Positions 2,043 through 60,872 of a stretch of DNA of 64,000 nt are shown here, piece after piece. The notes beneath the pieces are model-generated. The model saw only the letters and a list, made by a program, of their open reading frames with translations, was not told the origin of the DNA and ran no database searches. Position 1 is the stretch's first letter, and every line of letters starts with the position of its first letter. The position numbers and the translations under genes are program-made. This DNA is from Poecilobothrus nobilitatus (Eukaryota; Arthropoda; Insecta; Diptera; Dolichopodidae), in contig OX352772.1 of assembly GCA_947095535.1 (NCBI GenBank), positions 320,488,018-320,552,017 on the forward strand, read 5' to 3'.

Positions 2043-3219
2043 GAGTCTTTCAAATTAAGTTTTCAAAAGTAAATAATTAAAAGACATAGAATTTGAATTG
2101 AAACTGGAAAAGTTTTTATTTATTTTTGAAGTGCAATGCTTTTGATATTTATACTCTGAAAATGATCTCCCATGTTGCCTCTTGCATCTTTACAGTACCT
2201 GATTCTTTTATCAAAATATTCGGTCACATTCTGGCATGTTTGCGGGTCTATCTCACCAATAACTCGAATAATTTCTGCTTTCAATGCTTCAATGTTTCTA
2301 GGATTATCGTTGTAGACCTGTCCTTTCACATAGCTCCAGAGAAAGAAGTCTAACGGTGTCAAATCGCAAGGATCTTGAAGGCCAATTCCCGTCAACGAAT
2401 CTGAAAATAACACGGTCTGGAAAGTTTGTATAACTTTGTCAAACTTTGTATAGACACGTAGCCCCATCTTGTTAAAATCACATGTTCTTAGTATCAAAAA
2501 AGTTGTGATAATGTCGCGATATCTGGTACCGTTAATGGTTATGGAAGAGTGGAAGAGCTGGAAGAGTCCAGCATCATTTTCAAAAAAGTACGGACCAATC
2601 ACACCAGCAAACCACAATGCACAGCAAACATTGACTCTTTGTGGATGCGTTGGCTTCTCTTGGATCACGCGAAGGTTTTCCTCTCGTAGCCACCGATCTG
2701 GAAATGTGCCTCGTCCGCAAAGATGATTTTTTTTTTTTTAATCGTCGTTTTGTTCCAGTATCCAATTGGCAAAGTCCCGACGCATGGAATGATCTTGTGG
2801 CAGCAATTCTTGTGTCAATTGACCTTTGTAGGACTTAAAATCTTTGTGCATAATATGCCATAGAGTTGACTCAGAAAGTCCCAATTGTTGTGAACGTCGG
2901 GAAATTGACAGGGTGGGGTCAGCTGTAACACTATCATTCACAGCACCAATATTTTCTTGTGAACGACCGGCACGAGCATACTGATCTCTTTCTCGATCTT
3001 GTACTGTACCAGTTTCTTGAAATTTCCGCACAATATTGCCGATTTGGTTGGACGATTATGTCGACCATAATTAATTAAATATATTTCTTACAGAACTACC
3101 ATTTTCATAAAATAATTCAATAATTTCAACACGTTGTTGTAATGTATACGATTCCATTTTTATAAATATCAAACCTTCAACTGTCAAAATGACATAACTA
3201 AACTCAATTTGAAAGACCC
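2043..3219 (-). mobile_element. Mariner/Tc1-superfamily element, decayed
   Basis: Matching inverted ends are visible. The left end reads GAGTCTTTCAAATTAAG (2043-2059) and the right end, read on the minus strand from 3219, reads GGGTCTTTCAAATTGAG. Both are next to TA, the expected target of this superfamily. A single transposase frame lies between them on the minus strand and is broken by several indels. Element length (about 1.18 kb) is close to the family norm of about 1.3 kb. It is non-autonomous as seen. Confidence 0.88.
2120..3156 (-). pseudogene. Mariner-like transposase relic
   Basis: The gene once encoded a cut-and-paste transposase. It starts at ATG 3156 with a MESYTLQQRVEIIELF-like N-terminus, has helix-turn-helix sequence across 2738-3031 (including SISRRSQQLGLSESTLW), the first catalytic aspartate block ADEAHF (about 2715-2735), VCCALWFAGVIGPYFF (about 2580-2630) and DLTPLDFFLW (about 2330-2362), and ends at 2120. 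The second catalytic block, QQDGAT, is present in the DNA near 2460-2480 but in another frame. Two compensating frameshifts, near 2480 and near 2370, let a continuous 182-aa frame bypass it. A run of 11 T at 2728-2738 is another break. The protein is therefore not functional. Confidence 0.88.
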
Positions 3220-3795: not shown

Positions 3796-4430
3796 TTTTA
3801 TTCTATCCATTTTGTCGGTCTATCCTGCGCTTTTTTTATAAAAAAACTTCTAAATCATTTAAGATAAAGTGTTGCAATTTTATGAATTTTTAAGCTTTTT
3901 TGATAAGAAAATTTTTAAGCTTTATATAAAAATTATTAATTAGTTTTGCAATTTGGTAATTAAATTTACCGTTATGTTAAACCGTTATGTTATAATTTTA
4001 CAAAACATTAGCTCCTCCGTATATTTGGAACGCTTTCAGTTAGAATCTTGCAATTTTGAGAGGAAGAAGATCCTTGAGAATTAACATAAGTTGCTTCATT
4101 TTTTCAAATTTTTTGTACTTTCTCCTGTTTAATACGTATTATTAAAATGAAAACTCTATATTTTTAGACACCTCTGCAAATTTATCGTAATTTTAGAACA
4201 TTCAAATTAAAGGTCTAATACCAACTTTTTACAAATGTTAACACCTTTTATTCTAACTTTATGTAATTGGGTTCCGTTTAAATTGAAGACACTTTCTTTG
4301 ATTTGATTTTCCACAATTTTTTCTTATTTATATAAAAATTTTTAATGCAAAAGTAGTCACAGGTTTTTAATACGCTTTTTATTGTCTTTTTGTAAATGTG
4401 CTCCGTTAAAAATCTACGATTTTACTTACC
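3796..4430 (+). repeat. Dispersed 477-bp-period repeat family, copy C
   Basis: The sequence is collinear with 39740-41090 and with the reverse complement of 55930-57110. It has a degenerate CTGTCCGTCC-like start (about 3807-3830), then AAAACTTCTA, then TAAATTTACCGTTATG (about 3960-3976), then ACGCTTTCAGTTAGAA (about 4030-4045) and a TAACATAAGTTGC-like segment (4082-4094). It is strongly diverged and probably old. No protein-coding content is visible. Confidence 0.6.
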
Positions 4431-19167: not shown

Positions 19168-19915
19168 GTCGTGATGAACGCAATTTTCGAGCACTTTTTC
19201 CACTAAATCAAGTCATGCGGTAAATAAACAAAACTGTCGATTCTGGTGCAAAGAAAATCCACAAATTATTCATGTACCACCATTACATTCACCTAAATTG
19301 ACAGTTTGGTGTGGTTTTTGGTCTGGTGGAACCATCGGTCCGTACTTCTTTAGAAATGAAGCTGGTAACACCGTTACTGTCAATGGAGAGCGATAACCAA
19401 CGTATAGATCGATGATAACCAACTTTTTATGGCCGAAATTGGAAGAAGTTGATCTTGACAACATCTGGTTCCAACAAGACGGGGCTACGTGTCACACAGC
19501 ACGTGCAACAACCGAATTATTGAGAGAAAAGTTTGAAGATTCGATTATTTCAAGAAATTGTGACATTAAATGGACGTCCAAGAAGTTGTGATTTAACACC
19601 ATTAGACTATTTCTTGTAAGGTTATTTGAAGTCATTGGTCTTTAGCAATAAACCACACTCTCTTCAAGCTTTAGAAGTCAATATTGAACCTGCTATTCAT
19701 GACATACGACTTGATGGAAGTGGAAAAAGTGCTCGAAAATTGGGTTCATCGAATTCGTTCCTGCAAAAGAAGTCATGGAAGCCATTTGAATGACGTTTTA
19801 TTCAGAACTTAATTGTATCGATTGTACTTCACATTAAATAAAAAACATTTGAATTTTCTTAACAATTAGTGTGTTTTTTTTTTGAAAAGAAATCATATCA
19901 CTCAAATTTGAAAAC
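19168..19915 (+). pseudogene. Second mariner-like transposase relic, 5' rearranged
   Basis: From about 19220 the plus strand reads a mariner-type catalytic domain: VNKQNCRFWCKENPQIIH, then GGTIGPYFFRNEAGN, then WFQQDGATCHTA (19467-19503, with the second catalytic aspartate), then, in a shifted frame, CDLTPLDYFL and GYLKSLVFSNKPHSLQALEV. There is a stop inside the FLWGY-type motif (about 19616), another after NGER (about 19394), and at least two frameshifts (near 19560 and 19715). The 3' terminus carries ACTCAAATTTGAAAACCCTGTA-like sequence near 19894-19920. The N-terminal third is missing. In its place, 19173-19204 is an inverted copy of 19719-19750 from the transposase 3' end. It differs from the 2-kb copy, so two distinct mariner lineages are present. 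Confidence 0.85.
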
Positions 19916-20039: not shown

Positions 20040-20595
20040 AACACACTCTTATGTACTTTCTCTCAAATTTTCTAAATTTTTCCATTAAGCTGGCACTTAT
20101 GTTGTACCAGATTGGTGCCGTATAAACTAATAATTTTAACTCTTGTACAGATTGTTTTATTGAAAAATAGTTTCTTGCATGCCATGAATGCCTTATTTGC
20201 TTTCGAGATAGTTTCTTTGATATGGTAAGAGTATAGTCAATGTTATATTACTCCGAGATATTAATTAGATTAACTCTGAGATATTTAACAGATTATTTTT
20301 GTTTTGGTAATATATCATTTGAAGGGCTTTTAATTTCGAATTTTTTTCATTGCTTTTTTAAATTATAGTGCAAGTTTTTATAAGTATTTCGGAATAGAAT
20401 AGTTTCGCATTTATTATAGTTAATTTTTAGCTGCCAGACTTTACAATAATCGATTACAACATGAAACATTTTTTTCGCAGCATTATTTATATTTCCTATT
20501 TTGTTATTACTAATATAAAATATAATATTATATTTACAAAGGCCAAAGAATAATTTTCGCCCTAGACGAGGTACTCCCCTGAGCAAGGATGACAC
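20040..20595 (-). pseudogene. Jockey-like non-LTR retrotransposon RT relic
   Basis: The minus strand carries a decayed reverse transcriptase C-terminal half. The RT block RGVPRLGRKLFFGLCKYN (about 20520-20580) corresponds to the usual GVPQGS..GP.LF block. Downstream come VVIDYCKVWQLKINYNKCET (about 20400-20460) and ILFRNTYKN. After a frame change come VKYLRVN, KAFMACKKLFFNKTICTRVK and SLYGTNLVQHKCQL, running to about 20050. The catalytic YxDD segment between the first two blocks is absent, so it is deleted. No poly(A) or target duplication could be assigned. It is an inactive 5'- and internally truncated LINE. Confidence 0.75.
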
Positions 20596-21534
20596 GCAAA
20601 AACAGTATATAATAATATTATTGATCTATAGTATTTGCATACTTTTAGGGGTTTCATTTTATGCGCTAGTACTTATAATATGGTTTTAATTATAACATTG
20701 TATAAATAGTTTTTATAATACAGAATAATAGAGTAAAAACAAAATGATGTAAAAACAGGTAAAATATTTAAAAAATATAATAAATTTATTTTTTATAACA
20801 TACCTTTTAAATACATTATAGCTATAGTGTTTATTAGTGTCATCAACATATGAATTTAGTCCAACATATAATTGAAATATATTATTATATTAATTCTACA
20901 TTTATTTTTGCCACATTTATTTATTTATCAAATACAAAATATTATAAACTTTAAATCAAAAATCTAATAATAATTTCCTTTCATTCTATTTTCAATATTT
21001 CTAATTATAAATATTACAAAACAGAGAGATTCTCATGGAATTCTGATTCTTTTTACAATTGCATATACAATATGACGTATTTCATAGAAAACCGTCTTGT
21101 TTTTGACGATATGTCCCATGAGAAAAATAAACGGATAGAATATAATATAAAAAGTTTAGATTTTTTTTGTTGTATACTTCTATCTTTTAACACACTTTTA
21201 TTTCCCAAGTTTTTAATTTCTTAAAAGTGAATTTCTTCCTTTTTCTGATTATTCTTTGAACCGTTTTCTTATTTCTTCGAAGCAACAAAACAAAATATTC
21301 AAATCGTTTTAATAATGCGATACGATATGATTATATGATTTTTTTTTAAATCTAATACAATAGCTTAATAATTATACCAGCCAGGACAATTAGAATTTTT
21401 TTTTGTTTGTTGTTGCTTTTATTTTTATTTAATTTTCATTATGTACAAACAGAACAATAAAAACAGAAATGTATTGAAAGATAGCATATTATATAAATAT
21501 AGATATAAATTTTTTCCCTTATATCCTTACTAAA

Positions 21535-21860
21535 CCAACAATTTAAATCCTAATTTTGTATCCAACTTTAAAAACAATACATACTTTTTTTTTATGCTTT
21601 TGCAAATAAATGTTAACATTTTTTTCCTAAATTTAAGAATGGATTTTAGAATTGGACACAAAATTAGCATTTCAAATATACCTGTATTTTAGATGCTAGA
21701 ATCATTTTAACGAAATTTTGGGATGACATCCCTTATAATTTTAGAGTTTTGTTTTTGAAATAAGTATACGTATCTAAATTAGAAAAATATAATTAGAAAA
21801 AATTTTAGAGTTGAATTCAAAAACATGATTATATGCTTTTTCCGAATATATATATATGCT
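21535..21860. repeat. Foldback-core minisatellite fragment
   Basis: TTTTGTATCCAACTTTAAAA near 21551-21570 and inverted units such as TTTTAGAATTGGACACAAAA (21634-21653) and TTTTAGAGTTGAATTCAAAA (21804-21823) lie in opposite orientations. This makes it a decayed member of the 44-kb foldback family rather than a simple tandem array. Confidence 0.55.
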
Positions 21861-22505
21861 AAATAACAAATTAAGATGAAGTTTATGTAATAGAGTTACG
21901 AAATAAGGAGTTCTCTCTTTTTTAGCATAATTATATATATGCATATAAGTTAGCATGTACAAATAGTCAAATGAAATACATGCTTAACATCACAAACCCC
22001 AAAAAACCAATTTAACATTTTCAAATCTTTTTGATTTTTGTATTACTAGCAGGTTAATTTTTTTAAAACTTACATTTGATTTAATAAATTGAGTTCAAAA
22101 TTTGCGTTTTTCCTCTTTCGCTGTTTTTTAGAAGTTAATAATAATACTACTTCCATCGCCAAACCGGAATTTTCCTTTTTTTTATAAATTTCGGAAAAAG
22201 TTTATACATATACATATTAATTTATTTTTTTTTATCTCACTTAGGTTTTTTAATTGAAGATTATTTTAGAAAAAAAATAGTAGAAATAGTGAAAACCTTT
22301 TTATAAACCTATTTATAAGAGCCTTTTATATAGTTAGTTTTTTTTTTTAGGATTGTTTTACAATAGATTAGTTTTTAAATCATATCTTCAAACACATAAC
22401 AGATAAAAGAGTTGTTAACCCCATTCTAGAGAAAATATTCTAGAACAAGCAAAAACGGCTAATATAATATAAAGGAACTCACAATTGTCATATAAAAGTA
22501 TATGT

Positions 22506-22980
22506 TTAAAAAAAATAAATAAAAAATATTTTTAAAAAAACAGCTTTTTTGAACTAAAAAGTAGAAAATAAATTTTTAATAGCAAATTTTTCTGTAATTT
22601 TCTAAACTATATTGTTACAATCGAGATTTCTTTGAAAAACTTTATTTCAATATGTCAAATATATATATAAATATAAGTATATATAAGTTTTAAAGTCTGT
22701 GAAATTAAAATAAAAGCTGGAGACAACAAACGCTAAACTATAAACTTATATTTTTAAATTTTGCCTACAGCTTTTATATTAATTTCACAGACTTTAAAAC
22801 TTATATATACTTATATTTATATATATATTTGACATATTGAAATAAACTTTTTCAAAGAAATCTCGATTGTAACAATATAGTTTAGAAAATTACAGAAAAA
22901 TTTGCTATTAAAAATTTATTTTCTACTTTTTAGTTCAAAAAAGCTGTTTTTTTAAAAAATTTTTTATTTATTTTTTTTAA
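22506..22980. repeat. Giant near-perfect inverted repeat (214-bp arms)
   Basis: The arm 22506-22719 and the arm 22768-22980 are reverse complements with only a few differences, separated by a 48-base loop (22720-22767). Inner bases pair AGCTG with CAGCT, and outer bases pair TTAAAAAAAATAAATA with its complement at 22980. Arms include GTCTGTGAAATTAAAA and TGTTACAATCGAGATTTC. No coding frame crosses it. If transcribed on either strand it would form a roughly 214-bp duplex. It is a hairpin-RNA type locus, a palindromic duplication, or the two ends of a collapsed foldback element. Confidence 0.93.
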
Positions 22981-22994
22981 TATATTCTTTTTGT

Positions 22995-23195
22995 TGTTTA
23001 ATGTTTTTACATAATTGGAAATATATTCTCAGTTTTTATACTTCAGAAAAAGGCATTAGCGGTGCAGGTCATCATTCCCTAATAGATCTTAATTTAAAGG
23101 CAGCTCCCAATTTAGATATCAATGTTAGGGCCATAATATGCGATTTTAATATGTTAAGTGTTTCGAAAGAAAAGCCCTATTTTAATTATAATTAA
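22995..23195 (+). pseudogene. Possible P/THAP9-type transposase fragment
   Basis: The plus strand reads FLHNWKYILSFYTSEKGISG, then LIDLNLKAAPNLDINVRAII, then CDFNMLSVSKEKPYF before stopping. The pattern L..WK..L.FY...GI.G, a helix, NVRAI(V/I)CD and a later (V/S)(T/S)KEKPYF resembles the RNase-H-like region of P-element and THAP9-related transposases, where NVRAIVCD carries a catalytic aspartate. About 66 residues remain and no N-terminal or C-terminal domains are visible nearby. It starts 15 bp after the giant hairpin, which might be a piece of the same element. The family call is from remembered motif patterns and is tentative. Confidence 0.4.
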
Positions 23196-25074
23196 GAAAG
23201 GAAAAACACATATCTATATAAATATTATAAATAAACACATTGCTTTTATAAATAAAAATGTATACTAAAAATCAATTGATTTGATGAAAAAAAACTTAAA
23301 TTTAACACTTGCTAACTAAATTTTAAGTAAATGCATATTAAGTTTTACACTGTGTTCCCAAGTGCGGCACATTAATTTGTTTACACATTCATATCTTTCA
23401 AATGCATCGCTTTCAAACCAAAAATATTTTCGAAGCACATATTATTACATATTTTGAAGTATGTACCTATGTATATGTACGCATACAATGCAATGGTTTA
23501 CATAAAAAACAATAGTCTTTTATAGAAAAAATAAACATTTATGTATTACGTACATGTATTGGTATTGGTGAGTTTAGTAAATTTAGATAATGTTTTATTT
23601 TGGTTCTGTAATAATTCTGTTAAAAATTCTGTTATATCTTTGTATGAAAATTTAATTTTGAAATTAAGCTAATTTCTCTAATGTTTTTCGATATTATTAT
23701 TTTAAAATCATGTATTGTCATCGGGATCTGATCTAATGAAAAAAATTTCAAGCCTCTAGCTCAACGGGAAGTGTGTTTAAAATGGCTTCTAAGATTCCAT
23801 CCTTTACCCAACCAAGTTAATAAAAAGCTGTTAAAAAAAAAGCAAAAAATTAAAAATAATTCTACTAACGGTTATATTTCCAAGTTTTTAAATTATCATT
23901 TGACAAAAAATCTCAAGATCTTTCTTTTTGGCATGTCAACTTATATTATACCTTTCAAGAGATATTTACAGTATAAAAAATCCTTAATGACTTCACCGCT
24001 ATTTGGTGAACTCTCACAGAAGTTCTTTAATTCTTACAAAGCTTTTTTGTGGAAAATTTCAAAAACTTCATACCTATGATACCTATTCCTGTAATAAAAT
24101 ATAATTATCAAACTAAATTACAACTTTTAACTTTACATCAATTTTAGATCGGTCAAGGCTTACGTATATTCTACTTTTAGTTCTCGATGTACTCAATTAT
24201 TTTTGAAAAGATTCAAATTTTGGTATCTTGCCTATCAAAGAAGAAGTTTGGGTTGTCCCTCCTCGCCTTTATAAATATATGAATGAAAATCCTAAGAAGA
24301 CTTCATTATTTTTAAAATACTTTTCTTAAGATTAAATAAAGAAATTTCCTTTTTTCAAAAAAAAAAATAAATTGATATTAAAACACGTAAATTATGGCAT
24401 TTTATTTTTGCGTAATTAAAATTTTATCATTATAATTCAAAAAAGCGAATCTAACGCTTACAACTTGCAATAAGTTTATTTATTATAAGTCGCTACATAA
24501 TATAGATGTTTGAAATCACCCTTTGAAATATAAGGCCTTGTCCATGCAGAAAGCGGGCGGGAGATTTTTTTGCGAGCAAATCTAATTTTGCGATTTTTCT
24601 GTGGCAAGAATAGCTTTTTAAATTTAAATAACAGAAATTGATAATTTTCCAGTTTCACTCTAGCTTTCATGTAAAGTATTCTTTAAAATGTCTATTCTTC
24701 GTAAAATTTTATTTTGTGATACAAATTACTAAAAATTTAATTTTTAAAAATAATCGAAGATATGGAGTTCATCTTATTAATATGGTACGAGCTAGTTTTG
24801 GGAAGTTTCATCATCTTATAGAAAAACAAGAGACGACCCAATTTCTTTATACTTATACATATGCTTATACATAGTTTCTTTATGGTATAAGTGTAATTTA
24901 ATTACCAAAACGCAGCAGGGGTACTGTTTACTGGCAAAGTTAGCCAGTAAGCAGCATTTTTTAGAAAAATAAAAAATAATTTGTTTCTGTTTAATTGGTT
25001 GCGAATAATTCATTTTTATTTTTCATCAACCTCAATATTTTTTTATTTTTGTTGTTTTATAGTGCATTTCATGC
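23196..25074. other. Intergenic or intronic DNA, with a poly(A)-like tail
   Basis: No confident gene. A 102-codon frame (23771-24079) begins in slightly G+C-richer sequence but matches nothing I know. At 24335-24369 an AATAAA is followed 18 bases later by a run of 11 A, like the 3' end of a retroposed copy on the plus strand. A moderately open frame of about 43 codons follows a CATCAATTTTAG 3' splice-like site near 24148. A G+C-richer patch at 24530-24620 is unassigned. Confidence 0.4.
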
Positions 25075-25240
25075 CACATAAATTTGAACAGGAAATTACA
25101 CAGCCTTTCCTTTTCAGGCGTGGCTGTAAATGTCATAACGGGGAAAACTCTTACGACGTATGTGGGATTTGAACCCTCACTCCCTCGGTGTTTGCAGCGT
25201 ATTTTATACGCTCTTACTCATTAGGCAATCGAGGCCCCTA
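25075..25240 (-). repeat. tRNA-derived SINE
   Basis: The minus strand from 25238 reads GGGGCCTCGAT, then a Pol III A box in TTGCCTAATGAGTAAGAGCG (25209-25228), then a B box, GGTTCAAATCC (25165-25175), followed by CCACATACGTCG and a non-tRNA tail with ACAGCCACGCCTGAAAAGG. Box spacing (about 35-45 bp) is as in tRNA-derived SINEs. The region between the boxes does not fold into a normal tRNA with anticodon arm, and the sequence continues past the T-arm, so this is not a tRNA gene. Confidence 0.75.
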
Positions 25241-25244
25241 TGTT

Positions 25245-28200
25245 TTATACATATTATGTTTTTATTCTTTGAATTATAAATTTTCTTAGAATTAGAAAAC
25301 TTCTTAATAAAAAGTAAAAAAAAACATTTTATTTAATAAATTATTAATTGTGATTTTTCTTTTTTCTTACGAATTTGGACTCTTCTTAATTTGGTTTAGA
25401 ACAATATAATTTTCCGAAATGAAATGACGTAAAATTAAGAAATATGAAAAAACGATCAAAGTATGCTGCCAGCTGGGGTGCTGAAAGTAGGCTGAGTGAT
25501 CTTCTCTACATTTTTTATCTAAATTTCATATTTTTTATAAAAAAAAAAGGAATAAAATAAATAATGTGATCAAAAAGTATAATTTCCAGGATTTTTTAAA
25601 AATGTAGGAATGATGTTTGTGAATCAAAAACTAAAGAAGATACTAGAATTTAATTTTCAATATTTCTCTTAAGGATGCTGCGTACTGTGTTAACAGTATA
25701 AAGTACATTAATAATAGGTAATGTTAAACAAAATTTATTATATTTGTTCAAATAATTTTGTAAAATTTGTTTCTTATAACGTTAGCTAAACACTAGGAAC
25801 GTATTCCTTTATATTAATGTAGGTTTAGCTAAGTGGGAGAGGGAAAATGGGGAAAAAGGTTATTCTTCATTTCTTCAATAGTTGTAGGAGAAAAAAGAAA
25901 AACAAATTGCAGAAGAAAGGAGAACACATTGCAGGAGAGGAGAACACATTTGATGTTCTAAGAATGTGTTTCCATAACTAGCTGGGTAGTTTTGTTGAGT
26001 CATCTAACTGTTTAAGTTGAAATAATCTTAGGAGGCCCAAAATTGACTTTAGTTCAATAGGGCAGTGTCATTACCTATAAGATATCTATAAAAGAGTGCA
26101 GTGATAGTTTATGAAACTTCTGTTATTTAATATAACTATAATTTATATAAGACTTATATAATATAAGTTGTAATATAAATTAGTTTAATATTAATACCTA
26201 ATAAATAGATACATATCAAAGAAAAATTTGAATTAAAAATGTTTAAAATACACTCAAAAAATATAAAGTAATCTTCGTTGGCATTATAGATTATACGTAG
26301 ATGAAAATGCTTCATTCTTGGTATGTACTATCATTAACGCAAAAGTAAAAATACTGTAAATAAAATGGTGCAGCCTGTTAAAATTTTGTAGAAGTTTATC
26401 TAATAATTTAATATAACTTTTTTTACAATATGTACATCCTAGAGATGTTTAACCAAAAGGAACTATAGAGCAATATCTAAAAATAAAAATTCAAAATCAA
26501 AGAATCTACCGGCTACACTCTTCATACCATATATTTTATCCGATTATCCATCATCATATTTTTCGACTTTCAAAGATAATGCTGTGTTTACAAATATATT
26601 AACGTAAAAGAATATTGCATTGTGCTAAGCTATAAAATTTTCCAAAGATGGAGGCTGGAAAATTGGAAAAAAATTAAAAAGCATTTATATTTTTTGTTAA
26701 CAAATTGCAAATGATATAGTCAGCCAAATTGTAGGAGCAACAAAAAATATTATATGAAAATGTTAGCATTTCTTATTTTGATTATTTTAATTAAAGGAGA
26801 TCATTTAATTGAAGGGGATTTAAAAGAGATAAAGTAACCATTGTAATTATTAATTAAGAATTTTTTAGTTTTTCAAATTAAAAAAATTTTAAAACAGAAG
26901 TTCTAAAGTTGTCCAAAATTTAAATTCATAAAAATATGTTCAAAAGCTAAGTTTATCATAACTTAATTGATTTAACTATTATTGTAGAGATCCGGCGTAT
27001 TAAATTTCAAAAAAATTGCTACAGACTTAAAAAATGGAAAATAGCATTGATAAAGCAGCGTTAGATTTCCGGAATTTCCCATTAGAATAGTTATATCAAA
27101 ATTAGAATCAAAAGTATCAAGCATAATCAAGTTCATTATAGCAATAGTTTTGCGCGGAACAAACAGTTTTAAAAGGAGGATTAGCGCTTTTGCGACAAAC
27201 CGGAATAACAGTTATTATTTTTAATAATATTTTGTAGTATTAATATTTGATGTTATACCAATACATATAAATTATGTTATCTTAGATGTAATAAATGGCA
27301 AAAAATTAAAAAAAAATAATTAACTTATTGTTGCTGAAAAGAAAACAAAATTTTTAAACTCAGTGAATATGAAAAATATAATTAATGTTAAGATGGATTC
27401 TGTATAACTTGACAATGTTTATAAAAATAAAAAATAGACTATTTATCTCAAAAATCTGTTTTTTTGGTACAAAAATAGTAACAATTATCAAGACAAGAAA
27501 ATTATTTTCAAAACTATCATATTTTCTACATTAATAATTTGAATAACCATATGATGGAGAACTTAAAAATTTTTAGAACTATTTAGTGACTTTTAAATTT
27601 TGAAAAACATTAACATAATGTCGAATCTTAATAAATATAAGCTACTGATGGAAAAAAAAAGACATTAAAATTCATTTTTTATGTGAGTTTTGTATTCGTT
27701 TTTCTTTTTTTTTTTTAAATGACAAGAATTTAAAATTAAAGTTAAAACAAAAATACTAATTCTATTTAATTATATTTAATTATAATCTTTGCTTTTTTTT
27801 GATTATGAGAATTAAAAATATAAAACAATCCAAACATTCTCTTTTCAAAAAGAGATCACAATAGGGGTGATTAATTTTTTTTTATTTTTAGTTTTTTTAA
27901 TTGTTTTTAATATATTTTAATTATTTAGAATTTATTAGATTTTAATAGAATTTATTTACAATATGCTACAAAGTGTAAAAATAATTTAAAAGAATTTTTA
28001 AAGTGATAATTTACAAAAGACCATGGAAATTGTAAATATTGAAATTAATAATTCACTTTTTAAAAAAAAAGAATAAATTTTGCTTTAGTTTAGGTTAATA
28101 GATTTTAAGTAGTATAAATAATAGTCAAATTTGATATAAATAATAATAATGTATGTAAAAATAAATTTATTTAATAATATTAAGTAACATTTTATATTAT

Positions 28201-29207: not shown

Positions 29208-30155
29208 CTAAAATTTAAAAAAAAGAAAAAAAATATTAATTTAATTTATTTTTAATGTGGTAATTAAATATTTAACAAATATATATATAAGTGATTAACA
29301 TACTCATTACTATTATGCTGAGATTTTGCTACATATTTTTTTGATTCAGCTATTGTTGTATCAATTTTACCCAAAAATTCATCTATTGAACGTTTATTTT
29401 CTTCTTCTGGACTCATTACTATAGATTCAATTGATCTACAACTACTATTCGTACTGTTATTATTATAGTTCTGATTATTCTGATTATTATTATAATTTTG
29501 CACTGGATTTACTGTCGGTGATGTTGAATTTTGTAATTGCATAAATAAATTTTGATTTGATGATTCAAATTCAGTTCCAGCCACAGTAAATGCTCTGGCC
29601 GGCAGAGATTGTGGCCTATCATCTTTTGGATAATATGGTGACGATTTCTCAACTGGTATTAATAAATACTGTCTCAAAAATAAACTGTCTGATGCAAAGA
29701 GACGGTTAGCTCGACGGATTTGTTCCATCTTTAAAATAAAAAAAAAACAAATAATTAAGTTAATAAAGTAAAAATTTTATACGTATTAAAAATTCATGAA
29801 ATGGAAGTTATAAAATAATATGGAAGATAATCTAAAAAAAACTCAAGAATTGTGAATCTATTCTAAATCACCTAATTTTAAAATGTAGAAATCTTCAAGA
29901 AAAAATAGAGTTCATATCACTATCAAATATTATAGAGCATTCAAAATCTTAATTAATTTATACAATTTCATATATATGTACCTAATTAGAACTTTAGATT
30001 TATTTCAAAAAGGAAATTTGATCTGAAAATAAAAATATCCTACGTTGCCAAGAAAATTTAAAACTTTTTTTTGTTCTATACATACATTAATTTTTCTTTC
30101 AGGAAAAAAATGTATATGAGTCATTTTAAAGTTTTATTGATTTAACAAAATAAAA

Positions 30156-30186
<31 letters not shown>

Positions 30187-33100
30187 GTACTTATTTTTAA
30201 ATTTATCATGTAATAACATTATTTATACTTATTTATAAAAACTAAGCCTTAAGTAAACAAAAACAATGTTTTCACATATGATGAATTTATACTCCTTAAT
30301 GCATGTTATAATATAAAAATATATCAATAAAAATTTTTTACTATTTTAGTAAAAAAAGCTAAAAAAAAAAATTCGTACATTGAAATAAATTTTAAGAAAT
30401 TAATGTAAAACTTTTTTGTAAAGTTAAAATATATTATCTCTTATCTAGTCATCTTTCTTATTTAGTACCAAGAATCAAGATACATAAATCAAGATAAGAA
30501 AATTCTTAATTCAACAATAACTGTTGTAAAGAAATTGTATAGTATTTTAGTAAACAATTTTAAATTAAAATACTCATTAGCAATGCTGCTAATAGCAAAC
30601 AAGAAGTTCAAAATAATGAACATTGGGTTCAAATCAGTAATAACTTTATTTTAGTACATCTGGAAACTTTCCTTTTTTTAACAAACCTTTTTTTTTGTCA
30701 TTTTATGTCATTCAATGAAATTACAGTGCAAAAAGATTAAGAAAAAAACACTTTTTAAAGTTTAAAACTTCTTCAAATTCATAAAATAGTAAGATTCTTT
30801 TAAACAAAAATAAATATATCTCCCTATTGCGAACTTGATAATCGATAATAAAATTGAACAAATTGGAAAATCTAATAAATTATTTAGATTTTCAGCTATA
30901 ATTGTTAGAACAATTTTTAAAAACAGCAACAATAAAATCAAAACGCTTTATCCACTAAAGAAAAGAAAAGAATAAATAGAAAGTTTATATACAATAATTG
31001 TAACAGACAACAAACATTATAAATCCATGTTTCAACAAAGTTTAAATTCAAGTTTTATGGATCAGAAATTTAAACTTAGAAATAGAACAATATAAAATTT
31101 TTATAATTTCTCTAAAGAATTCATAAAAAACAAAAATAAAATATGTAAATTATTCAATTATTAGAATCGTTTGAACATTTTCTATTTATTATTTTTGTAC
31201 TCGACCAATCCCATCTTTTTGTATCAGACATTTGCTTAAACCAATTGTTAGTAAATGATGATACTGAGATATTTAATTGGTCATTACCACTGGTCATAAC
31301 TACTAATTAATGTTAGTAATGATGTTAATGGTAATAAGAAACAAGAAAAAAAGGAAAGAAACTAACATGCAAATTAGATTAAAAATGACAGAATAATCAT
31401 GCAGACTACGAGAAATAACCATGCTCGCGTAAAGTCTGGCTCTCAGTGTTAATTTGTTAACGCTAATATCGAAGAGCTCAGACCTTGAGTTAATCTCTCT
31501 TAACGTACGCGAAATAGGCTCAAATTTGCCATAGTCGGTAGAATGCTGTGACACATTAAAAAGCTCGACCGATCTCAAATTATTCAGATTTTTAGAGAAA
31601 AAATGTTGTTTATTACTAGAAAATGTGTTTAAATACTAGAAAAAATAGCATTCATATTTTACAACAAACATTTGTTAAAGTATGTCAAATTTATAACCAT
31701 GTGTCAGATCTAAATATAAACAAATAATTTAAAAAAAAAGATTATGTAAACTTCTCTTGAATTAAAACTAATGATTGTCTTTTCTATAAATATAAACTTT
31801 GTAATAAGAAAATAAAATAGAACAAATTCAAAACATATCTTAAAAGATTACTAACATCATTAGTTTATTTCAGAAATGTTATTAGCATAATTGTACAGAG
31901 ATACAATTTATTAATACAATTAATTTCATTTAAAAGACAAAAGAATATTCATAATTAAAACCAAAAAGAAACAAATATACAAAAACAAAAAAATATCACA
32001 TGATTAAATATGACTACTGATACACTTTTGCCAAGTCTTTATCTTGTATTCTTAAATCTTAGTACATGAAATAAACCAACAATATTTTTCTCTTATCTAA
32101 AAAAAGTGTCTAAATTTTTTCAGTTTGTCAGTTTGAATACCAATAAAATGCTTTTTTTTTTTTTTTTTTTGAAAAATTTTAGGTAATTAAATTTTACCCT
32201 TTGTTTAATGTACAAAAAATAAAATTTGCTTTAAGAGTAGGTAAACAAATATAAAGTGTTTCAAAATATACATATTCAAACGCACACTTCCACGACAAAT
32301 TAATTTTACAATAAACTAATTCATTGGTTAAATAAATTATTTTAATTAAATTCTTGTTCAAAATATACATAGTAATAAAACAACAATGTGTACGAAAGGG
32401 AAATTTCATTATATGAAAAATAATAAAATAAGGATATTAACATTTAGTTTTAACGGTTAATGTCCAGGATTATTTATTTACTTAGGGTTTTATTTATCAT
32501 AAAAATTTTGTAGTTATGAAAATAAGTATTAACGTCATCTTTTGAATTCAATACATTTTGTTTTAAACATATTTCTTATATATTTTATATATGTATGTAC
32601 GTATACATATATGCATATTTCAATTTTATGCTACCACGTATATTGTTCAATAAATAAAGTATAAAAAATTGAAAATATTTTCTTAATGAAAAAAAATAAG
32701 AAAAAGTAAATTGAACTGAAACCTTAACATGTCAATTCAATTTTAGTTGATACGTAATATTTTTTGTTTTAAAAGAAAATACAACTTTACTTGCATCAAA
32801 TACATAATACTTATAACATCATAACATGTAATATACATTGCACATTTTTAGATTGATTAAAAATAATTTATTTTTTTTTTATATTTCTTTACACTGGTGT
32901 TTCGTGTGGAGCTAATACTTATCATTTAACTTTTCACTTTTCAATATAATTTTCTCTTCAAATATTAATTGTGTTATATTATAGTTTTTGTTTAAAAGGT
33001 ATCAAATGCTAAAATATTTATAAATAATCTATGAGATCATATGAATAAAATATAATTGTTTTCAGATTTTACCACTATATGTAGCACCCTTATACAAAAT

Positions 33101-37161: not shown

Positions 37162-38643
37162 TTAAAGAAATAGTGATCTAGGCTCTAAAATATGTTGTCT
37201 GCCAAATTTATCATTTTTGCAATTGTTCTCTTCAAGTTGTGGAACTTTTCCAATTAATTTTAAGTAATTTGGTTTAGTTGGACAAACTTTTTTCACACAA
37301 CGACTTTTAAACATTTCTGCCAGATTTTTACTTATGTTTCTTTGCTTATGTAGATTTGTTAATAATTCATAAGGTCTATCATAAACAACATTTATAAATT
37401 CTTTTTTAAATTTTGGTAAATATAAATTATTTGGTTTTAAATCAATTTCATTCTTTAATTGATTTTTAAAGGCTTTTGTGCTAATATTTGTTTTAGCATC
37501 TTGAACTATTTTTTTCTTTCTTATAACTAATATTGAATCGCCGTCTATTCCATTCGTTGGATTCCTAATGTAATCTGGTAATGAAATTTTTTCAATTGGA
37601 ACTATTCGTGGAGTTGCAAGTAGTTTACATTTTGGTGTATTTCTCCTTTGTTCACTATTTTTTATTCTTGAGTATGTCCTTATTGGAGTTAAACATTTTC
37701 TCCACTTTGTAATAGTTTTGGGTGGAGATTTTACAAACTTTTCTTTTCTAATATAAGTCTTTACTATCTGTTTCTTGAAAACTAGTGTTGAATTACTGTT
37801 TTCAAAATGTGAACAAATATTACCTGATTCTTTTAAATTTTGAAGTTTTGGGACCGTTAATAATTTTACAGGTTTTTTAGGACTATCCTCAGTTTGATTT
37901 CTATATAAATGAACAAGTTTAAATTTTTGATCAATTGATTTTGAATGATTTTTATTGATTGGAGATTTGGTTTCTTTTTGTATTTTATTGATTTTCTTTT
38001 TACTATATGTCTTCACAATACTTTTTGTTTTAGATACTGGGCTCTTTACATTATTTTCTGAAAATTTTATTGGGTAAGCACTTAGATCTGGCTTTGGTAG
38101 TTTATACAGCGTTCCCAATTCATTTAAATTATGTATTTGTGTTAATGGTGAATTAAATGTTAATTCTGCAGATATATTAAGATGATTTTCTTGCAGACTT
38201 TCACATAAATTTAGATCTTTTTTGTAATTTTTTTCATTTAAATTTAATTTGTTAATGGGAGAATAAAAAATATCATTTTTAATTCCAATTATAGGACTTA
38301 TTCTTCTTCTTTTAATATAACGCCTTGTTATGTCTAATGGTGAAAATTGCAAACTATTACTACGTGCACACGATTTTGTTTTATATTTTGTTGTTATCAT
38401 AGATGTTACCTAAAAACATTACAAACTCGATATATAAAAACTAAATATAAATAAATAAATTACTTTGGGTTGAATATTAAAGTCAGCTTTTTCGCAGCAA
38501 CACCTCCTACTTTCTACAACATTTTCTAAAACAATACGATTATTTCTTATTAGAGGTACAAATATTTCAGAGTCGAATCCATCTAACTCTAGTAAAACAA
38601 TTTTATTTCCAGAAAGTAGTTTAATATTAAAATTTATGTTCAT
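37162..38643 (-). CDS. Lysine-rich, S/T-P-rich protein of unknown function, two exons
   Basis: Exon 1 is 38643-38464 (60 codons). A 53-base intron follows, with donor AAA|GTAATT and acceptor TGTTTTTAG at 38410. Exon 2 is 38409-37162. The spliced frame is in phase and gives about 475 aa. The N-terminal 60 residues look like a small beta-rich fold (MNINFNIKLLSGNKIVLLEL). The rest is basic and probably disordered, with a KRRR patch near residues 93-96. It has at least eleven S/T-P sites (for example FSPLD, ISPII, KSPVS, KSPIN, DSPKK, KSPPK, LTPIR, NTPKC, ATPRI). A motif, (I/V)(K/R)TY(S/I)(K/R), recurs three times (about residues 191-199, 275-283 and 302-310). The C-terminus has a CVKKVCP segment. 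This composition suggests a nuclear, CDK-regulated or chromatin/cell-cycle protein, but that is inference and I do not recognise the family. Confidence 0.82.
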
Positions 38644-39739
38644 ATTAAATATTTTTCAAACTAAACAAAAGCAACAAAAGTATGTAAACATAAACAACCA
38701 ATACACAAAGATTTTAAATTCAAATAAATTTCTCAGTTAAAATGTCATAATATTTTCAGTGAGTTGCCGTTTTAATACATATTTTTAAAAATATAACAGT
38801 TTATAACAACAGTTTTACCCTAGTGGTAAGTTTAATAAACTAATTATAAAACTCAAGTAAGAAATGTAAATAATTTAAGATATAGTAATAATACATAAAG
38901 ATTATAGTAATAATACATAAAGTTACATGCACTTAAATAATTTTTTTTTATTTATATATTTTTGTTTAATTATAATTATTTAATTTTAAATAACAGTTAA
39001 CCCAAAAAAATTTTCAAAATTCTCCTAATCAGTCTTAATATATGTAGTCTCTGATATAAGTAAATAATATTTATTTTTAAAACTTACCGCTAGTTACGGC
39101 AACTGTACATTCAAAAAACATTACATTTTTTATAGAAGTTAATTATTGAAAATAAAAATAAAACTTTTTCCTGTTCTTGCTTTGTGCTTTTCTTATTTAT
39201 AACTTTTAAAAAAATTTCAAAACGAAAAAAAAAACATATTATTATAATTGCATATTTTTAGGATATTTTTTTTGTGGTTTTAGTTGGAAACTGTTAATAA
39301 AATCAGAAATATATAGACATAATATAGGTATCAAAATAATCAAAAATTCAATTTTTAACCAGTTAAAATTCATTTTTTTTATGACTTATCCATTAAATGT
39401 ACAAGTGCTCTTGAAAAAAAAACTTAATCTTTAATAATTGTTAAAAAAAAAAAATAAATTTCCTTCCTTTTGTAAACACCGAACTGATACGAAGAATTCA
39501 TCAGAAACATTTGAACATGATGACAACATAGTATATAGTAAGTAGCGAAAATTATTCAATCTAATATTTAATTTTTAAAAATTTGTAATCTAATACTTTT
39601 TTTTTTCGCTACATCAACAAAATAACGAATTTCGATAAAGAAATAATATTATTATTCGGTTAGTATTTTTTTTAGACTGAAAAGTGTACGAATAAAAAAT
39701 TATATTCAAAGTAAATAAATTGTTTTTAGCACATTTTCA
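38644..39739. other. Upstream region of the unknown gene, otherwise empty
   Basis: This holds the presumed promoter of the minus-strand gene. No clear TATA box is present within 60 bases of its ATG. A short direct repeat, AGTAATAATACATAAAG, is found twice at about 38885-38922. Nothing else is recognisable. Confidence 0.5.
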
Positions 39740-41090
39740 AAAATAATTTTGAAAAAATGTACAAATATTAGTTTCACTCTGTCCGTTCCTGCGTCCATCT
39801 GTTTACAAAACTTTTATACCGGTAAAGATAGAGTAATAAAATTTGAACTATGGGTAAGTCTTATAAAAAAAATTATGTTGTGGAACAACTTTTTCATGTA
39901 GTCCCATCCTTTACGAAACTACAGCCACTCAAATCCTATTGGAAAAGTCCTGTTTTTAAATGTGTATATCTATATCTCAAGTTCGGCTTAAGATTTTTTC
40001 AATTTAAAAACGCTATTCGACAGGACTATTTTTTACCTTTATAAATCAATATATGCTTATCAAAATTATATATTGATTTATAAATCAAAAGTACCTATAC
40101 TTCTTCTTGTTTATGACCATTTCTCTTATCTGGGCCGCTCTCCTTGATCTAAGGCGCCAAGAACATCTTTCTTAGGTTGTCGTAGCGTTCAATCCTGCGT
40201 TCTTATCATGCCGTAGTTAACTGTTCCGATTCATGCTGCTGATGGTCTTCCAGGATTTCTTTTAGATATTGATATGTTAAGGGCCTTTTGTTAAGAATGT
40301 TCTTCGTTTCTGTCCATGGCATGACCGTACCATCTTAGACGTTTTTCTGCTGGTTTATCTTTAGTGTCGGCATTTGAAAGCATTCGTTATAGGTATTGGT
40401 ACATTTCTGTATTTGTTGGGCCTATAAATAATTCGTTTGAAAATGGTAAGTATATACTCCGTTTAAATTCTATTTATTTTTGGACCATTGTTTTTTAAAT
40501 TGTCAGGCCACTGCTTCACTTTTATTCGCAGGTCTTCTAAAAACCTAGAGGATCGTCACTTTTCTTACTTTTAGTAAACAATATCAAAATTATGCAAAGT
40601 TTTATAATTTACTATTTAAATTTAGATATGTGAAGATAAAATTTTGAAAGATCTATCTTCCTTTATAATGCCGGCACGCTTTTAAGTTAGAACCTTAACA
40701 TTTTAAAAGAAAAAAGACTTTTAGAATTAGTGTAAGTTGTTGAATATTTTTTTCTATCACCCCCTTTTAACTACTATTAGGGCCCAAAAATTTAAATTTT
40801 CCTATTTTTAAACATTTGTATCTTATAGGCACCTGTAAAAATTTTTTCAAAATAAAAGGCGAAAATTATAGTTTCAGCTTTTTAATTTTACATTGGTTAA
40901 TAGTTTTTCTTAATTATGTAGAATTCCCTTAAAATTATTGATGAAAGTGTGTCTTTATTTTTCAGATTTTTTCTTATTATACAAAATTTAAAGAAAATTT
41001 TCAGATTCTCGTGCAAGTTATAACAGGTCTAAACAATTTGTATTGTCTTTTGGAAATGTTACCCTTTAAAAACCATTGGCTTACATTCTG
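39740..41090 (+). repeat. Dispersed 477-bp-period repeat family, copy A (interrupted)
   Basis: The left end, TTTTTAGCACATTTTCAAAA, then TTAGTTTCACTCTGTCCGTT, TTTACAAAACTTTTATACCG and GTTGTGGAACAACTTTTTCA (39724-39895), matches the reverse complement of 57110-56940 closely. Matching resumes near 40600 with TAATTTACTATTTAAATTTA, then GCCGGCACGCTTTTAAGTTAGAA (split by small changes), TTAGAATTAGTGTAAGTTG and TTTTTAAACATTTGTA. The stretch about 40090-40590 is not part of the family and is an insertion. Confidence 0.75.
40100..40380 (-). pseudogene. Non-LTR retrotransposon ORF2 C-terminal relic
   Basis: The minus strand reads KRLRWYGHAMDRNEEHS, a stop, then QKALNISISKRNPGRPSAA, followed by R/E-rich remnants. 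This is the familiar C-terminal signature RLRW.GHV.R..E......L.......RG.GRP seen after the reverse transcriptase in insect LINE ORF2 proteins. Several stops and frame changes follow. It interrupts dispersed repeat copy A, so it inserted later than that copy. Confidence 0.6.
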
Positions 41091-42199
41091 CCTCGTTTTT
41101 TTTTTTCATAAATAAACAAATATTTATTTTGCACTACCTATTTATAAATGTTAATCAATTAATAAAAAAAAAAACATGAATAATAATTTATGATTTTGTT
41201 ATGATTATGATAAGTGAACATGATTAATTTAATACATATACATACATACTTATATAGTTTAAATTTTTCATCATATTTTTTGATAACATAAATATATCCA
41301 TATATAAAAAAAATTTAGAAATGGATAGGGGAAAAAAAATTGTCACTTTTTTTTTTTTTTGAAAAATAAGAAAAGATGCGCAAAGAAAAGTTTGGGACTT
41401 TTATCCAAAGCTATAATGACCCAGCATAATTCTAACCTAACTCCTACTCATAATTTTTTGACTGCAAAAGTGTAAAGTAAAATGTTTTAATAAAAATTAA
41501 TCAATTTTAGTATGTAATTAATGTTAATGTTATAAATTTAATGATCAGTGAAGAATTTTTACCAACACTTCCATGCCCAATTAATTTTTTATTTTAAAAA
41601 ATAATATGATGGTAATCAATATTTTTTTTTGTATACAGTTTGATTAATTAATATATTTAAATAAATCAAAATAATATTAATTGCATTTTAACAAAAAATT
41701 AAATATAAGATTAAATAGATAAATTTTCCATTTTCCTTAAAAAAAAATTGTAAATTAGATGGAATTTGTCCATCTGAAAAAAAAAAAAGAAGAAATTAAT
41801 GTAAGAGTAAGAAAATTGGATTATATTGGTATAATAGAAACTCAAATATATACACACATATAACCATCAACCAAGTATTATTAGTATACATATTACCAAG
41901 TTTTAAAATCAACTATGCAATATAATATACATATACAATATTGTTAATATTATGTAGATGCTCTTATAAAAGTACTAGAGACAAAGAGTACAAAACAGAA
42001 TTTTAAGGCAAATTGTAAAAGTGCTTAATGACACAATAATGATGCAAATAATGATACGATTCACAGGCACTAATGTGTGCACATATATATAACAAAAGTA
42101 AAAGAACAAATGTAACCCACTCATGGTCACCCTGTAGCAAACTATAATAATAACAATAATTAATAATACTAATAATATAACAGATGCTAGAGTGACAGT
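41091..42199. other. Gene-free A+T-rich DNA
   Basis: I see nothing beyond homopolymers (41101, 41340, 41780) and TACATATACAATA-type microsatellite sequence near 41880-41960. Confidence 0.55.
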
Positions 42200-55929: not shown

Positions 55930-57110
55930 TGCAAATAGGACATTTTTGAAATTTTGAGGGGCTATAAGTCCGGAATCCTATATAACTAAGAAAAGCCGTT
56001 AACACACGTAAAAATATATTATTGAAGCTTTAATTTTTATGTCTTGCCGAAGAAAAATTTGTACAGGTGCCTAAGTTACAGGTGTCTAAAAATAGCAAAT
56101 TTTCAATTTTTGAGGCGTAATAACTCTTAAAGAGGGGGTGTTACCAAAAAATTTTATGAGGAAACTTATACTAATTCTAAAAGTTCTTTCTTGTCTCAAA
56201 ATTTCAGGTTCCTATCTAAAGGGGTGCCGGAGTTATGAAAAAAGAAATTTCATGCAAAATGTGGTTTTCACATAACGGTAAATTTAAATAGTAAATTACA
56301 AAATATCACATAATTTTGATATTGTTTTATATAGATAATAAAATTTTCGATCTTCTGGCGGTTTTAGATTGCAAAATTATTACGCAGAGCCCGAGATATA
56401 TACATCTGAAAATGGGGCTTTTTCGCAATTTTGAAGAGCGGCAACTTTGGAACCCTTTACAATTAAAATAAACCTTTAACACAAGTAAAAATATATTATT
56501 GTAGCTTTAATTTTTATATCTTGCAGAAGTAAAATGTGTACAGGTTCCTAAGTTACAGGTGTTTAAAAATAGCAAATTTTCAATTTTTAAGCCCTAATAG
56601 CTCATAAACAGGGGGTCCTCCGAAAAAATTTTCTGAGCAAACTTATACTAATTCTAAAAGTTCTTTCTTGCCTCAAAATTTCAAGCTTCTATCTAGAAGC
56701 GTGCCGGAGTTATGAAAGTAGAAATATCATGCAAAATTTGGTTTTCACATAACGGTAAATTTAAATACTAAATTTAAAAAAATTGTATAATTTTAATATT
56801 AATTTACAAAGATAAAAGAAATACCTGTCGAATGACGTTTTCAGATTGAAAAAATCTGAAACAGAACATAAGATATATGCATTTAAAAATAGGGCTTTTT
56901 CAAAGTTTGAGGGGCTGTAGCTCCGTAATGGGGGGGGCTACATAAAAAAGTTGTTCCACAAAATTATTTTTTTTATGAGACCTACCTATGGTTAAAATTT
57001 TTTTTCTCTATCTTTAACGGTGTAGAAGTTTTGTAAACAGACGGACGGACGGACAGAGTGAAACTAATAAGCACATTTTTTCAAAATTTTTTTGGAAATG
57101 TGCTAAAAAC
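55930..57110 (-). repeat. Dispersed repeat family, copy B, with 477-bp tandem units
   Basis: About 2.3 tandem units: GTGCCGGAGTTATGAAA occurs at 56224 and 56701, and GTTAACACACGTAAAAATATATTATT-like sequence near 55997 and 56477. ACATAACGGTAAATTTAAATA occurs near 56270 and 56747. The minus-strand start is GCACATTTCC, followed by TTAGTTTCACTCTGTCCGTC with a CCGTC triplication (57040-57065). No coding frame runs through it. Frequent aligned T-runs and the repeated phrase AACTCCGGCACGCTTCTAGA (minus) make it easy to recognise in copies A, C and D. Confidence 0.82.
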
Positions 57111-59696: not shown

Positions 59697-59720
59697 TACT
59701 AAACTTTCATTTTGCCGTTT

Positions 59721-60872
59721 ATGTCACAACATTTCGTAGCTATCGGAGTTGTTGACATACTTATAGAAGAATTATCGAAATTAAATTTAAATAGAAATAC
59801 AGAAAATCGAATCATGACAGACCCAAAAAGCCTTACAATTGACCCACTTAAATATTTAGAACGTGTACCTGAATTTAATGGGAAATTCGGTACCTTACAA
59901 ACTTTTATCGATTTAGTAGATCGGATCACACCTTTACTACTCCAATACGACGAATTCTCAAAAGGAATTTTCTCTGACATAATTAAATCAAAATTAACTG
60001 GAAGTGCCAGAGAAGTTATCGAAATCAATCATCAAGCTACCACCTGGGATGAAATTAAAAAAGTACTTAATAACAATTTTGGCGATAGGCTATCCGCTGA
60101 CCAACTTTTTGACCAGTTAAGGGGCCAAACTTTTAAGACGAATGCTGTCGAATTTTACAACGACGTGAAAGCTATACTTAGAAGACTAAATACAAAAACA
60201 CAGTTGGAATACCAAAACAATAACGACGAATTAGAAAGATATTTAAAAGCTAACGTTCAAAGTGCTTTAGATACTTTTAAAAATAAAGTTCCTGAACCCT
60301 TGAAATCAATCCTATCTTGCAGAGATCCTAAGACGTTAGAAGATGCAATGAAAATTTTATACGAATCGGGCTACGCTTTTTCGAATATCAATGTCAATCA
60401 TAACTATACCCAAAATAACCATAACAGTAATCGTAATCGCCATAATAACAATAATCGTTACATTAGTAACAAAACATCCCAAAATCGTTCAAATAACATT
60501 CAAGACAATCCAAATCGTGATAATAATCGTAATTCTATTCGAAACCCCTCTAATAATATTAATAATAATGGTAATCGCTCAATCAGATATTTCAACAATA
60601 ATACATCTCCAAATACAACGCACCAAAACGGTACCTCTAATCCCAACATTCTTCATAATAATAACAGAAGCCCACCTGGTGTGTACAATCATATAAATAA
60701 TCAACGACCATTTTACAATAATTGGCAACCAAACCAGAACAGAAATTCTCACTACAACCCCAACTACCAAAACAATTACAATTCGCAAGTAGAACCCATG
60801 GATGTTAATAATCAGCAAACCATCGATATAGGAAATTTTCGGGAGACTGGCCAAACCGACTCACCTACATAA
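59721..60872 (+). CDS. gag: Gag-like structural protein of the LTR element
   Basis: The frame is 383 codons from ATG 59721 to TAA 60870-60872; a second in-frame ATG at 59814 (MTDPKSLTIDPLKYLERVPE) may be used instead. Residues about 40-210 resemble the gypsy-type capsid: FNGKFGTLQTFIDLVDRITP, SARE(V), TTWDEIKKVLNNNFGDRLSA. Residues about 230-350 are strongly N- and R-rich with no CCHC zinc knuckle, as in 297/17.6 gag, and presumably supply RNA binding. The end, QVEPMDVNNQQTIDIGNFRE, is typical of the group just before the frameshift. The product would form cytoplasmic particles carrying the element's RNA. The frame is intact. Confidence 0.9.
   Translation: MSQHFVAIGVVDILIEELSKLNLNRNTENRIMTDPKSLTIDPLKYLERVPEFNGKFGTLQTFIDLVDRITPLLLQYDEFSKGIFSDIIKSKLTGSAREVIEINHQATTWDEIKKVLNNNFGDRLSADQLFDQLRGQTFKTNAVEFYNDVKAILRRLNTKTQLEYQNNNDELERYLKANVQSALDTFKNKVPEPLKSILSCRDPKTLEDAMKILYESGYAFSNINVNHNYTQNNHNSNRNRHNNNNRYISNKTSQNRSNNIQDNPNRDNNRNSIRNPSNNINNNGNRSIRYFNNNTSPNTTHQNGTSNPNILHNNNRSPPGVYNHINNQRPFYNNWQPNQNRNSHYNPNYQNNYNSQVEPMDVNNQQTIDIGNFRETGQTDSPT
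60833..60839 (+). promoter_or_regulatory. -1 ribosomal frameshift site, A AAT TTT
   Basis: In the gag frame the heptamer sits as A AAT TTT, exactly the X XXY YYZ form, 31 bases before the gag stop. The -1 frame is open from here through protease, with no stop to 62870, so pol can be made as a gag-pol fusion. A clear stimulatory stem was not found by eye. Confidence 0.75.

What the first reader, a model, noticed from the sequence alone, without database searches (positions are those of the whole stretch)
22506..22980. 475-bp near-perfect hairpin locus with 214-bp arms
Two arms of 214 and 213 bases differ at only a few positions and are separated by a 48-base loop. Such identity in A+T-rich neutral DNA means recent origin, gene conversion, or function. 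In flies, long inverted repeats of this size are the precursors of hairpin RNA-derived endogenous siRNAs. It could equally be a foldback or P-type element end pair, since a transposase-like scrap starts 15 bp later.
Basis: partly seen in the sequence, partly recalled or inferred. Interest (0 to 1): 0.75.

Follow-up and report, generated by a model that had tools for sequence, protein, structure and literature searches.

The report
Palindromic fly repeat, probably MITE-like
A stretch of very A+T-rich fly DNA reads almost the same backwards on the other strand, most likely because it is a small non-coding mobile element (or a one-off inverted copy) of a kind already seen in flies; nothing in the sequence itself shows that it makes regulatory RNA.

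Summary
In detail: arms 22506-22719 and 22768-22980 flank a 48-base loop and match at 211 of 214 aligned columns. It is not chance: the longest exact arm is 111 bp, against 15-18 bp in 8 resampled sequences and 24 bp in the window without the hairpin (arms up to 1 kb apart). The host is a fly: one frame's best database match is a Condylostylus (long-legged fly) protein, 74% identical. The arms are 15% G+C and match the rest of the window only in A+T-rich low-complexity stretches. No target-site duplication beyond chance is found. The neighbouring 'transposase scrap' is a sub-threshold match to the P-element-type RNase H domain, unconfirmed. Best reading: a palindromic MITE/foldback-type repeat, comparable in structure with the 488-bp palindromic repeat 'Unknown 6' of Calliphora vicina (PMC3630058); main rival, a one-off inverted duplication. 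Endo-siRNA precursor: possible, untested, no specific support. The decisive copy-number search never ran: the genome server did not answer nine identical requests.

The parts
22506..22719 (+). left arm of the near-perfect inverted repeat (weaker complementarity from 22494)
22720..22767 (.). 48-nt loop; its outermost bases still partly pair
22768..22980 (-). right arm, 211 of 214 aligned columns identical to the left arm (weaker complementarity to 22991)
22499..22503 (.). TATAT two bases outside the left arm, repeated at 22981-22985 directly after the right arm; possible target-site duplication, of little weight (in 260 of 300 random boundary boxes the best exact repeat is 5 bp or longer; no null was made for this exact position)
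22981..22985 (.). TATAT directly after the right arm (see 22499-22503)
22956..23195 (+). 79-codon open frame overlapping the right end; residues 19-64 weakly match the P-element-type RNase H domain (TNP-like_RNaseH_N); possible transposon relic, not part of the hairpin
   Evidence: E 0.0065, below cut-off; not confirmed

Best explanation
A short, non-coding palindromic repeat of the MITE/foldback kind: two long terminal inverted repeats around a tiny centre, with no gene of its own, inserted fairly recently into DNA of a long-legged-fly-like genome. It would be moved in trans by the transposase of an autonomous relative that recognises its ends (inferred). The pairing of the arms is then a by-product of its terminal-repeat structure and would give double-stranded RNA only if something transcribes through it (inferred). 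Shown here: structure, arm identity, no detectable coding content, host group. Not shown: mobility, copies, target-site duplication, transposase family.
For: Arms fill nearly all of a compact unit of about 480 bp and the match stops on both sides. No coding signal: arms 15% G+C, no Pfam match with E 0.1 or less in six read-through frames of 20501-26502 (a scan that also missed the weak fragment), no Rfam match in the window. The window holds other mobile or repeated DNA: an LTR-retrotransposon pol (RVT_1 E 1.4e-41) and dispersed and tandem repeats. Structural precedent in another fly: C. vicina 'Unknown 6', 488-bp consensus, palindromic over nt 1-465 at 92% identity, present 12 times (PMC3630058, section 21). 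TATAT lies at both ends, of little weight.
Against: No second copy in the 64 kb. The best exact flanking repeat in the scanned boundary boxes is 7 bp, reached or exceeded in 73 of 300 random boxes. The outermost bases are A/T-rich runs with no transposon-end signature that I recognise (from memory, no database of termini was searched). Genome copy number could not be tested.
Confidence: 0.52

Rival explanations
1. One-off inverted duplication: replication or repair switched template and copied about 215-230 bp of local A+T-rich DNA back in reverse orientation; the locus is single-copy and has no function.
For: The arm occurs only as this pair in the window; no target-site duplication beyond chance; arm composition lies inside the local range (8% of 214-bp windows are as low in G+C). 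Foldback inversions through single-stranded DNA hairpins are described in yeast (PMC7467729, start of abstract in the listing).
Against: Compact, nearly symmetric unit as in a known palindromic fly repeat. No positive evidence: no relative without the second arm was available.
Confidence: 0.3
2. Hairpin-RNA gene: the locus is transcribed, the transcript folds on itself, and Dicer-2 cuts it into 21-22-nt endo-siRNAs that silence a gene or transposon.
For: Geometry is compatible: a long, near-perfect stem with a short loop. Young hpRNAs exist in Drosophila and match genes or, in one case seen, a transposon (PMC10317233, passages and section 7).
Against: Drosophila hpRNAs typically show substantial complementarity to one or a few targets, from a single siRNA to extended regions, and are proposed to derive from them (PMC10317233, passage); here no 18-mer or longer is shared with the rest of the window and the arms are 15% G+C. 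The count of sampled 21-mers with a near-match elsewhere in the window (22) is within the spread of 25 random segments (mean 14.7, sd 9.7). Targets outside 64 kb were not searchable. No RNA data.
Confidence: 0.1
3. Assembly or library fold-back artefact.
For: Long palindromes are a known product of fold-back reads (recalled).
Against: The arms differ at three places, there is a largely unpaired centre, and both flanks run on into unrelated sequence instead of continuing the palindrome.
Confidence: 0.05

Closest known systems
Calliphora vicina 'Unknown 6' palindromic repeat (PMC3630058; section 21 and passages seen)
   Same: About the same length (488 bp), palindromic over nearly its whole length (nt 1-465, 92%), unclassified, in a fly
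Galileo (P superfamily, foldback-like; PMC4168063, passages seen)
   Same: Long terminal inverted repeats; copies made of two TIRs without a transposase segment exist
   Different: 7-8-bp target-site duplications and a putative transposase that places it in the P superfamily; neither shown here
Drosophila hpRNA loci (PMC10317233, passages and section 7 seen)
   Same: Long inverted repeat arms able to form double-stranded RNA
   Different: Recognised by Dicer-2-dependent siRNAs and usually a complementary target; none shown here
MITEs with terminal inverted repeats (e.g. the Bari-related MITEs of PMC4877112; search listing and start of abstract only)
   Same: Short, non-coding, inverted-repeat ends (class features recalled)
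   Different: Recognisable family termini and target-site duplication not found here

Membership tests
MITE / foldback-type DNA transposon | terminal inverted repeats at the ends of a compact non-coding unit | tested here: met
   no Pfam match with E 0.1 or less
MITE / foldback-type DNA transposon | target-site duplication flanking the unit | tested here: inconclusive
   TATAT at both ends and a best exact repeat of 7 bp; 73 of 300 null boxes reach 7 bp or more
MITE / foldback-type DNA transposon | multiple dispersed copies in the genome | tested here: inconclusive
   one pair in 64 kb; whole-genome search unanswered nine times
P superfamily (P, 1360, Galileo) | P-type transposase linked to the element | tested here: inconclusive
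   adjacent fragment matches TNP-like_RNaseH_N at E 0.0065, below cut-off; no P-element match in the PDB at E 10 or less, none of 7 candidates with E 10 or less, no match in read-through frames
P superfamily (P, 1360, Galileo) | 7-8-bp target-site duplication | tested here: inconclusive
   one 7-bp exact repeat at boundaries that do not fit the arm ends, not beyond chance
hpRNA (endo-siRNA precursor) | long near-perfect inverted repeat able to fold as one stem | tested here: met
hpRNA (endo-siRNA precursor) | Dicer-2-dependent 21-22-nt siRNAs and a primary transcript | not testable with these tools
   no RNA data available
hpRNA (endo-siRNA precursor) | complementary target gene or transposon | tested here: inconclusive
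   no specific match within the 64 kb; rest of the genome not searchable

The most novel reading that the evidence does not exclude
A recently born hairpin-RNA gene in a long-legged fly whose endo-siRNAs silence a gene or transposon elsewhere in the genome, outside the Drosophila species in which the hpRNAs cited here were described.
Probability: 0.08. Interest if true: 0.5.

Novelty: new member of a known kind. Interest (0 to 1): 0.15.

Why it matters
If it is a palindromic mobile repeat, it adds one case to a poorly classified class of fly repeats and warns that long hairpins in A+T-rich fly DNA are not by themselves evidence of RNA-interference genes. If it were an hpRNA gene, it would allow tests of endo-RNAi outside Drosophila.

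Tried and rejected
Other copies of the arm in the window: with the low-complexity filter off, the shown part of the list (cut at 3000 characters) holds, besides the two arms, only A+T-rich matches, the best 68 columns at 78%, E 1.6e-7, at 30132-30195. An exact 26-base arm pattern in viral contigs and in prokaryote genomes: 0 stretches in each; expected for fly DNA and hardly informative, and those outputs say that records of the window's own genome may be left out. tRNA genes, with ARAGORN on the bacterial code: 0. Rfam at gathering scores: 0. P-type fragment: the only PDB match at E 10 or less is AclR at E 0.62, taken as chance; 7 candidates, none with E 10 or less. The same fragment also matched DUF7663 at E 0.019 and ERGIC_N at E 0.17, and another of the ten frames scanned matched an unrelated family (Renin_r) at E 0.0071, about as well as the P-type match. 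Frame 23732-24079: 8 candidates, none with E 1 or less. Seven literature searches (5 to 15 papers listed each) showed me no closer structural precedent than C. vicina Unknown 6; most listed papers were not opened. Rejected: chance origin. Considered unlikely: assembly artefact.

Full report
Observation. The inverted repeat is real and the stated coordinates are accurate. Arms 22506-22719 (214 nt) and 22768-22980 (213 nt) align at 211 of 214 columns, with a 48-nt loop. Weaker pairing extends a dozen bases outwards, to 22494 and 22991, and a few bases into the loop. The three core differences are a one-base indel at 22528 and substitutions at 22640/22847 and 22709/22778. As RNA, 22494-22991 folds at -279.3 kcal/mol, against a mean of -65.35 for 100 shuffles (z -43.4). 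For arms up to 1 kb apart, the longest exact arm in the window is 111 bp; eight first-order resamples gave 15-18 bp, and the window with the hairpin cut out gave 24 bp. This is not chance.

Host. The window is 24% G+C. The frame 29267-29776 (minus strand) has its best match, by E-value, in a LysM-domain protein of Condylostylus, at 74% identity over 89% of the query, among 64 matches with E 0.001 or less from 97 candidates. The frame's own Pfam scan gave no family, so the LysM name comes from the matches. C. longicornis is reported at 26.5% G+C, and its authors place long-legged flies (Dolichopodidae) at the low end for insects (PMC10749331, passages). The host is therefore very probably a fly near that family; the species is not known to me.

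Setting. The window holds an LTR-retrotransposon (pol frame 60812-62872, RVT_1 E 1.4e-41), a 477-bp tandem unit at 55999-56901 related to stretches around 39722-41101 and 3924-4173, and frames at 2120-3055 and 19397-19591 that read like transposases. That last statement is my reading of the translations; the pieces 2123-2737 and 19397-19588 gave no transposase family, and 2738-3055 was not scanned. The fragment beside the hairpin (22956-23195) resembles the P-element-type RNase H domain below the curated threshold (E 0.0065, 17.2 bits against 24.6, one of ten proteins scanned). Against it: the same fragment matched two unrelated families at E 0.019 and 0.17, another of the ten frames matched an unrelated family at E 0.0071, the match was not recovered in read-through frames, and neither the PDB nor the protein database (7 candidates, none with E 10 or less) supported it. 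By eye the residue pattern looks P-like to me, from memory only.

What it is. Mobile-repeat reading: the unit is compact, its arms fill almost all of it, no coding content was detected, and a structurally similar dispersed repeat is known in another fly: C. vicina 'Unknown 6', 488-bp consensus, palindromic over nt 1-465 at 92%, present 12 times (PMC3630058, section read). The two sequences could not be compared. Against it: no second copy in 64 kb and no target-site duplication beyond chance. In boundary boxes of 35 by 35 positions the best exact flanking repeat was 7 bp, reached or exceeded in 73 of 300 random boxes; the 5-bp TATAT at the arm ends is no longer than the best repeat in 260 of those 300, though no null was made for repeats exactly at the arm ends. 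A one-off inverted duplication explains these negatives equally well and stays the main rival.

RNA reading. In Drosophila, hpRNAs are recognised by Dicer-2-dependent siRNAs and a primary transcript that rises in dcr-2 mutants (PMC10317233, section 7), and they typically show substantial complementarity to one or a few targets, from one siRNA to extended regions (same paper, passage). Here no 18-mer or longer is shared with the rest of the window; three 16-mers are, all A/T only. Sampled 21-mers with a match of up to three mismatches elsewhere (22) lie within the spread of 25 random segments (mean 14.7, sd 9.7). The arms are 15% G+C, below all seven frames measured (25-41%). These points argue mildly against a gene-derived hpRNA; they do not exclude a transposon target or one outside the window.

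Age. Three differences in 214 columns (1.4%) point to a recent origin or to arm-to-arm gene conversion; these cannot be separated with one copy.

Limit. Confidence in the mobile-repeat reading is therefore only about one half, and rests on structure and one published precedent.

Noticed in passing
59703-64000: LTR-retrotransposon on the plus strand: a gag-like frame (59703-60872, my reading), a pol frame with reverse transcriptase and RNase H domains (60812-62872), and an integrase-like frame (my reading) running off the window end.
   Followed up: partly
55999-56901, with related stretches at 39722-41101 and 3924-4173: Tandem pair of a 477-bp unit (83% matches) with inverted relatives elsewhere in the window (67-82% identity); a dispersed repeat of unknown class.
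   Followed up: no
2120-3055 (-) and 19397-19591 (+): Broken frames that read to me like Tc1/mariner-type transposases; the pieces scanned gave no transposase family in Pfam.
   Followed up: partly
29264-29776 (-): Frame with best database match to a LysM and putative peptidoglycan-binding domain-containing protein 1 of Condylostylus; used to place the host.
   Followed up: yes
37162-38409 (-): 415-codon open frame with no convincing Pfam match (best E 0.89); possibly a fast-evolving fly gene.
   Followed up: no
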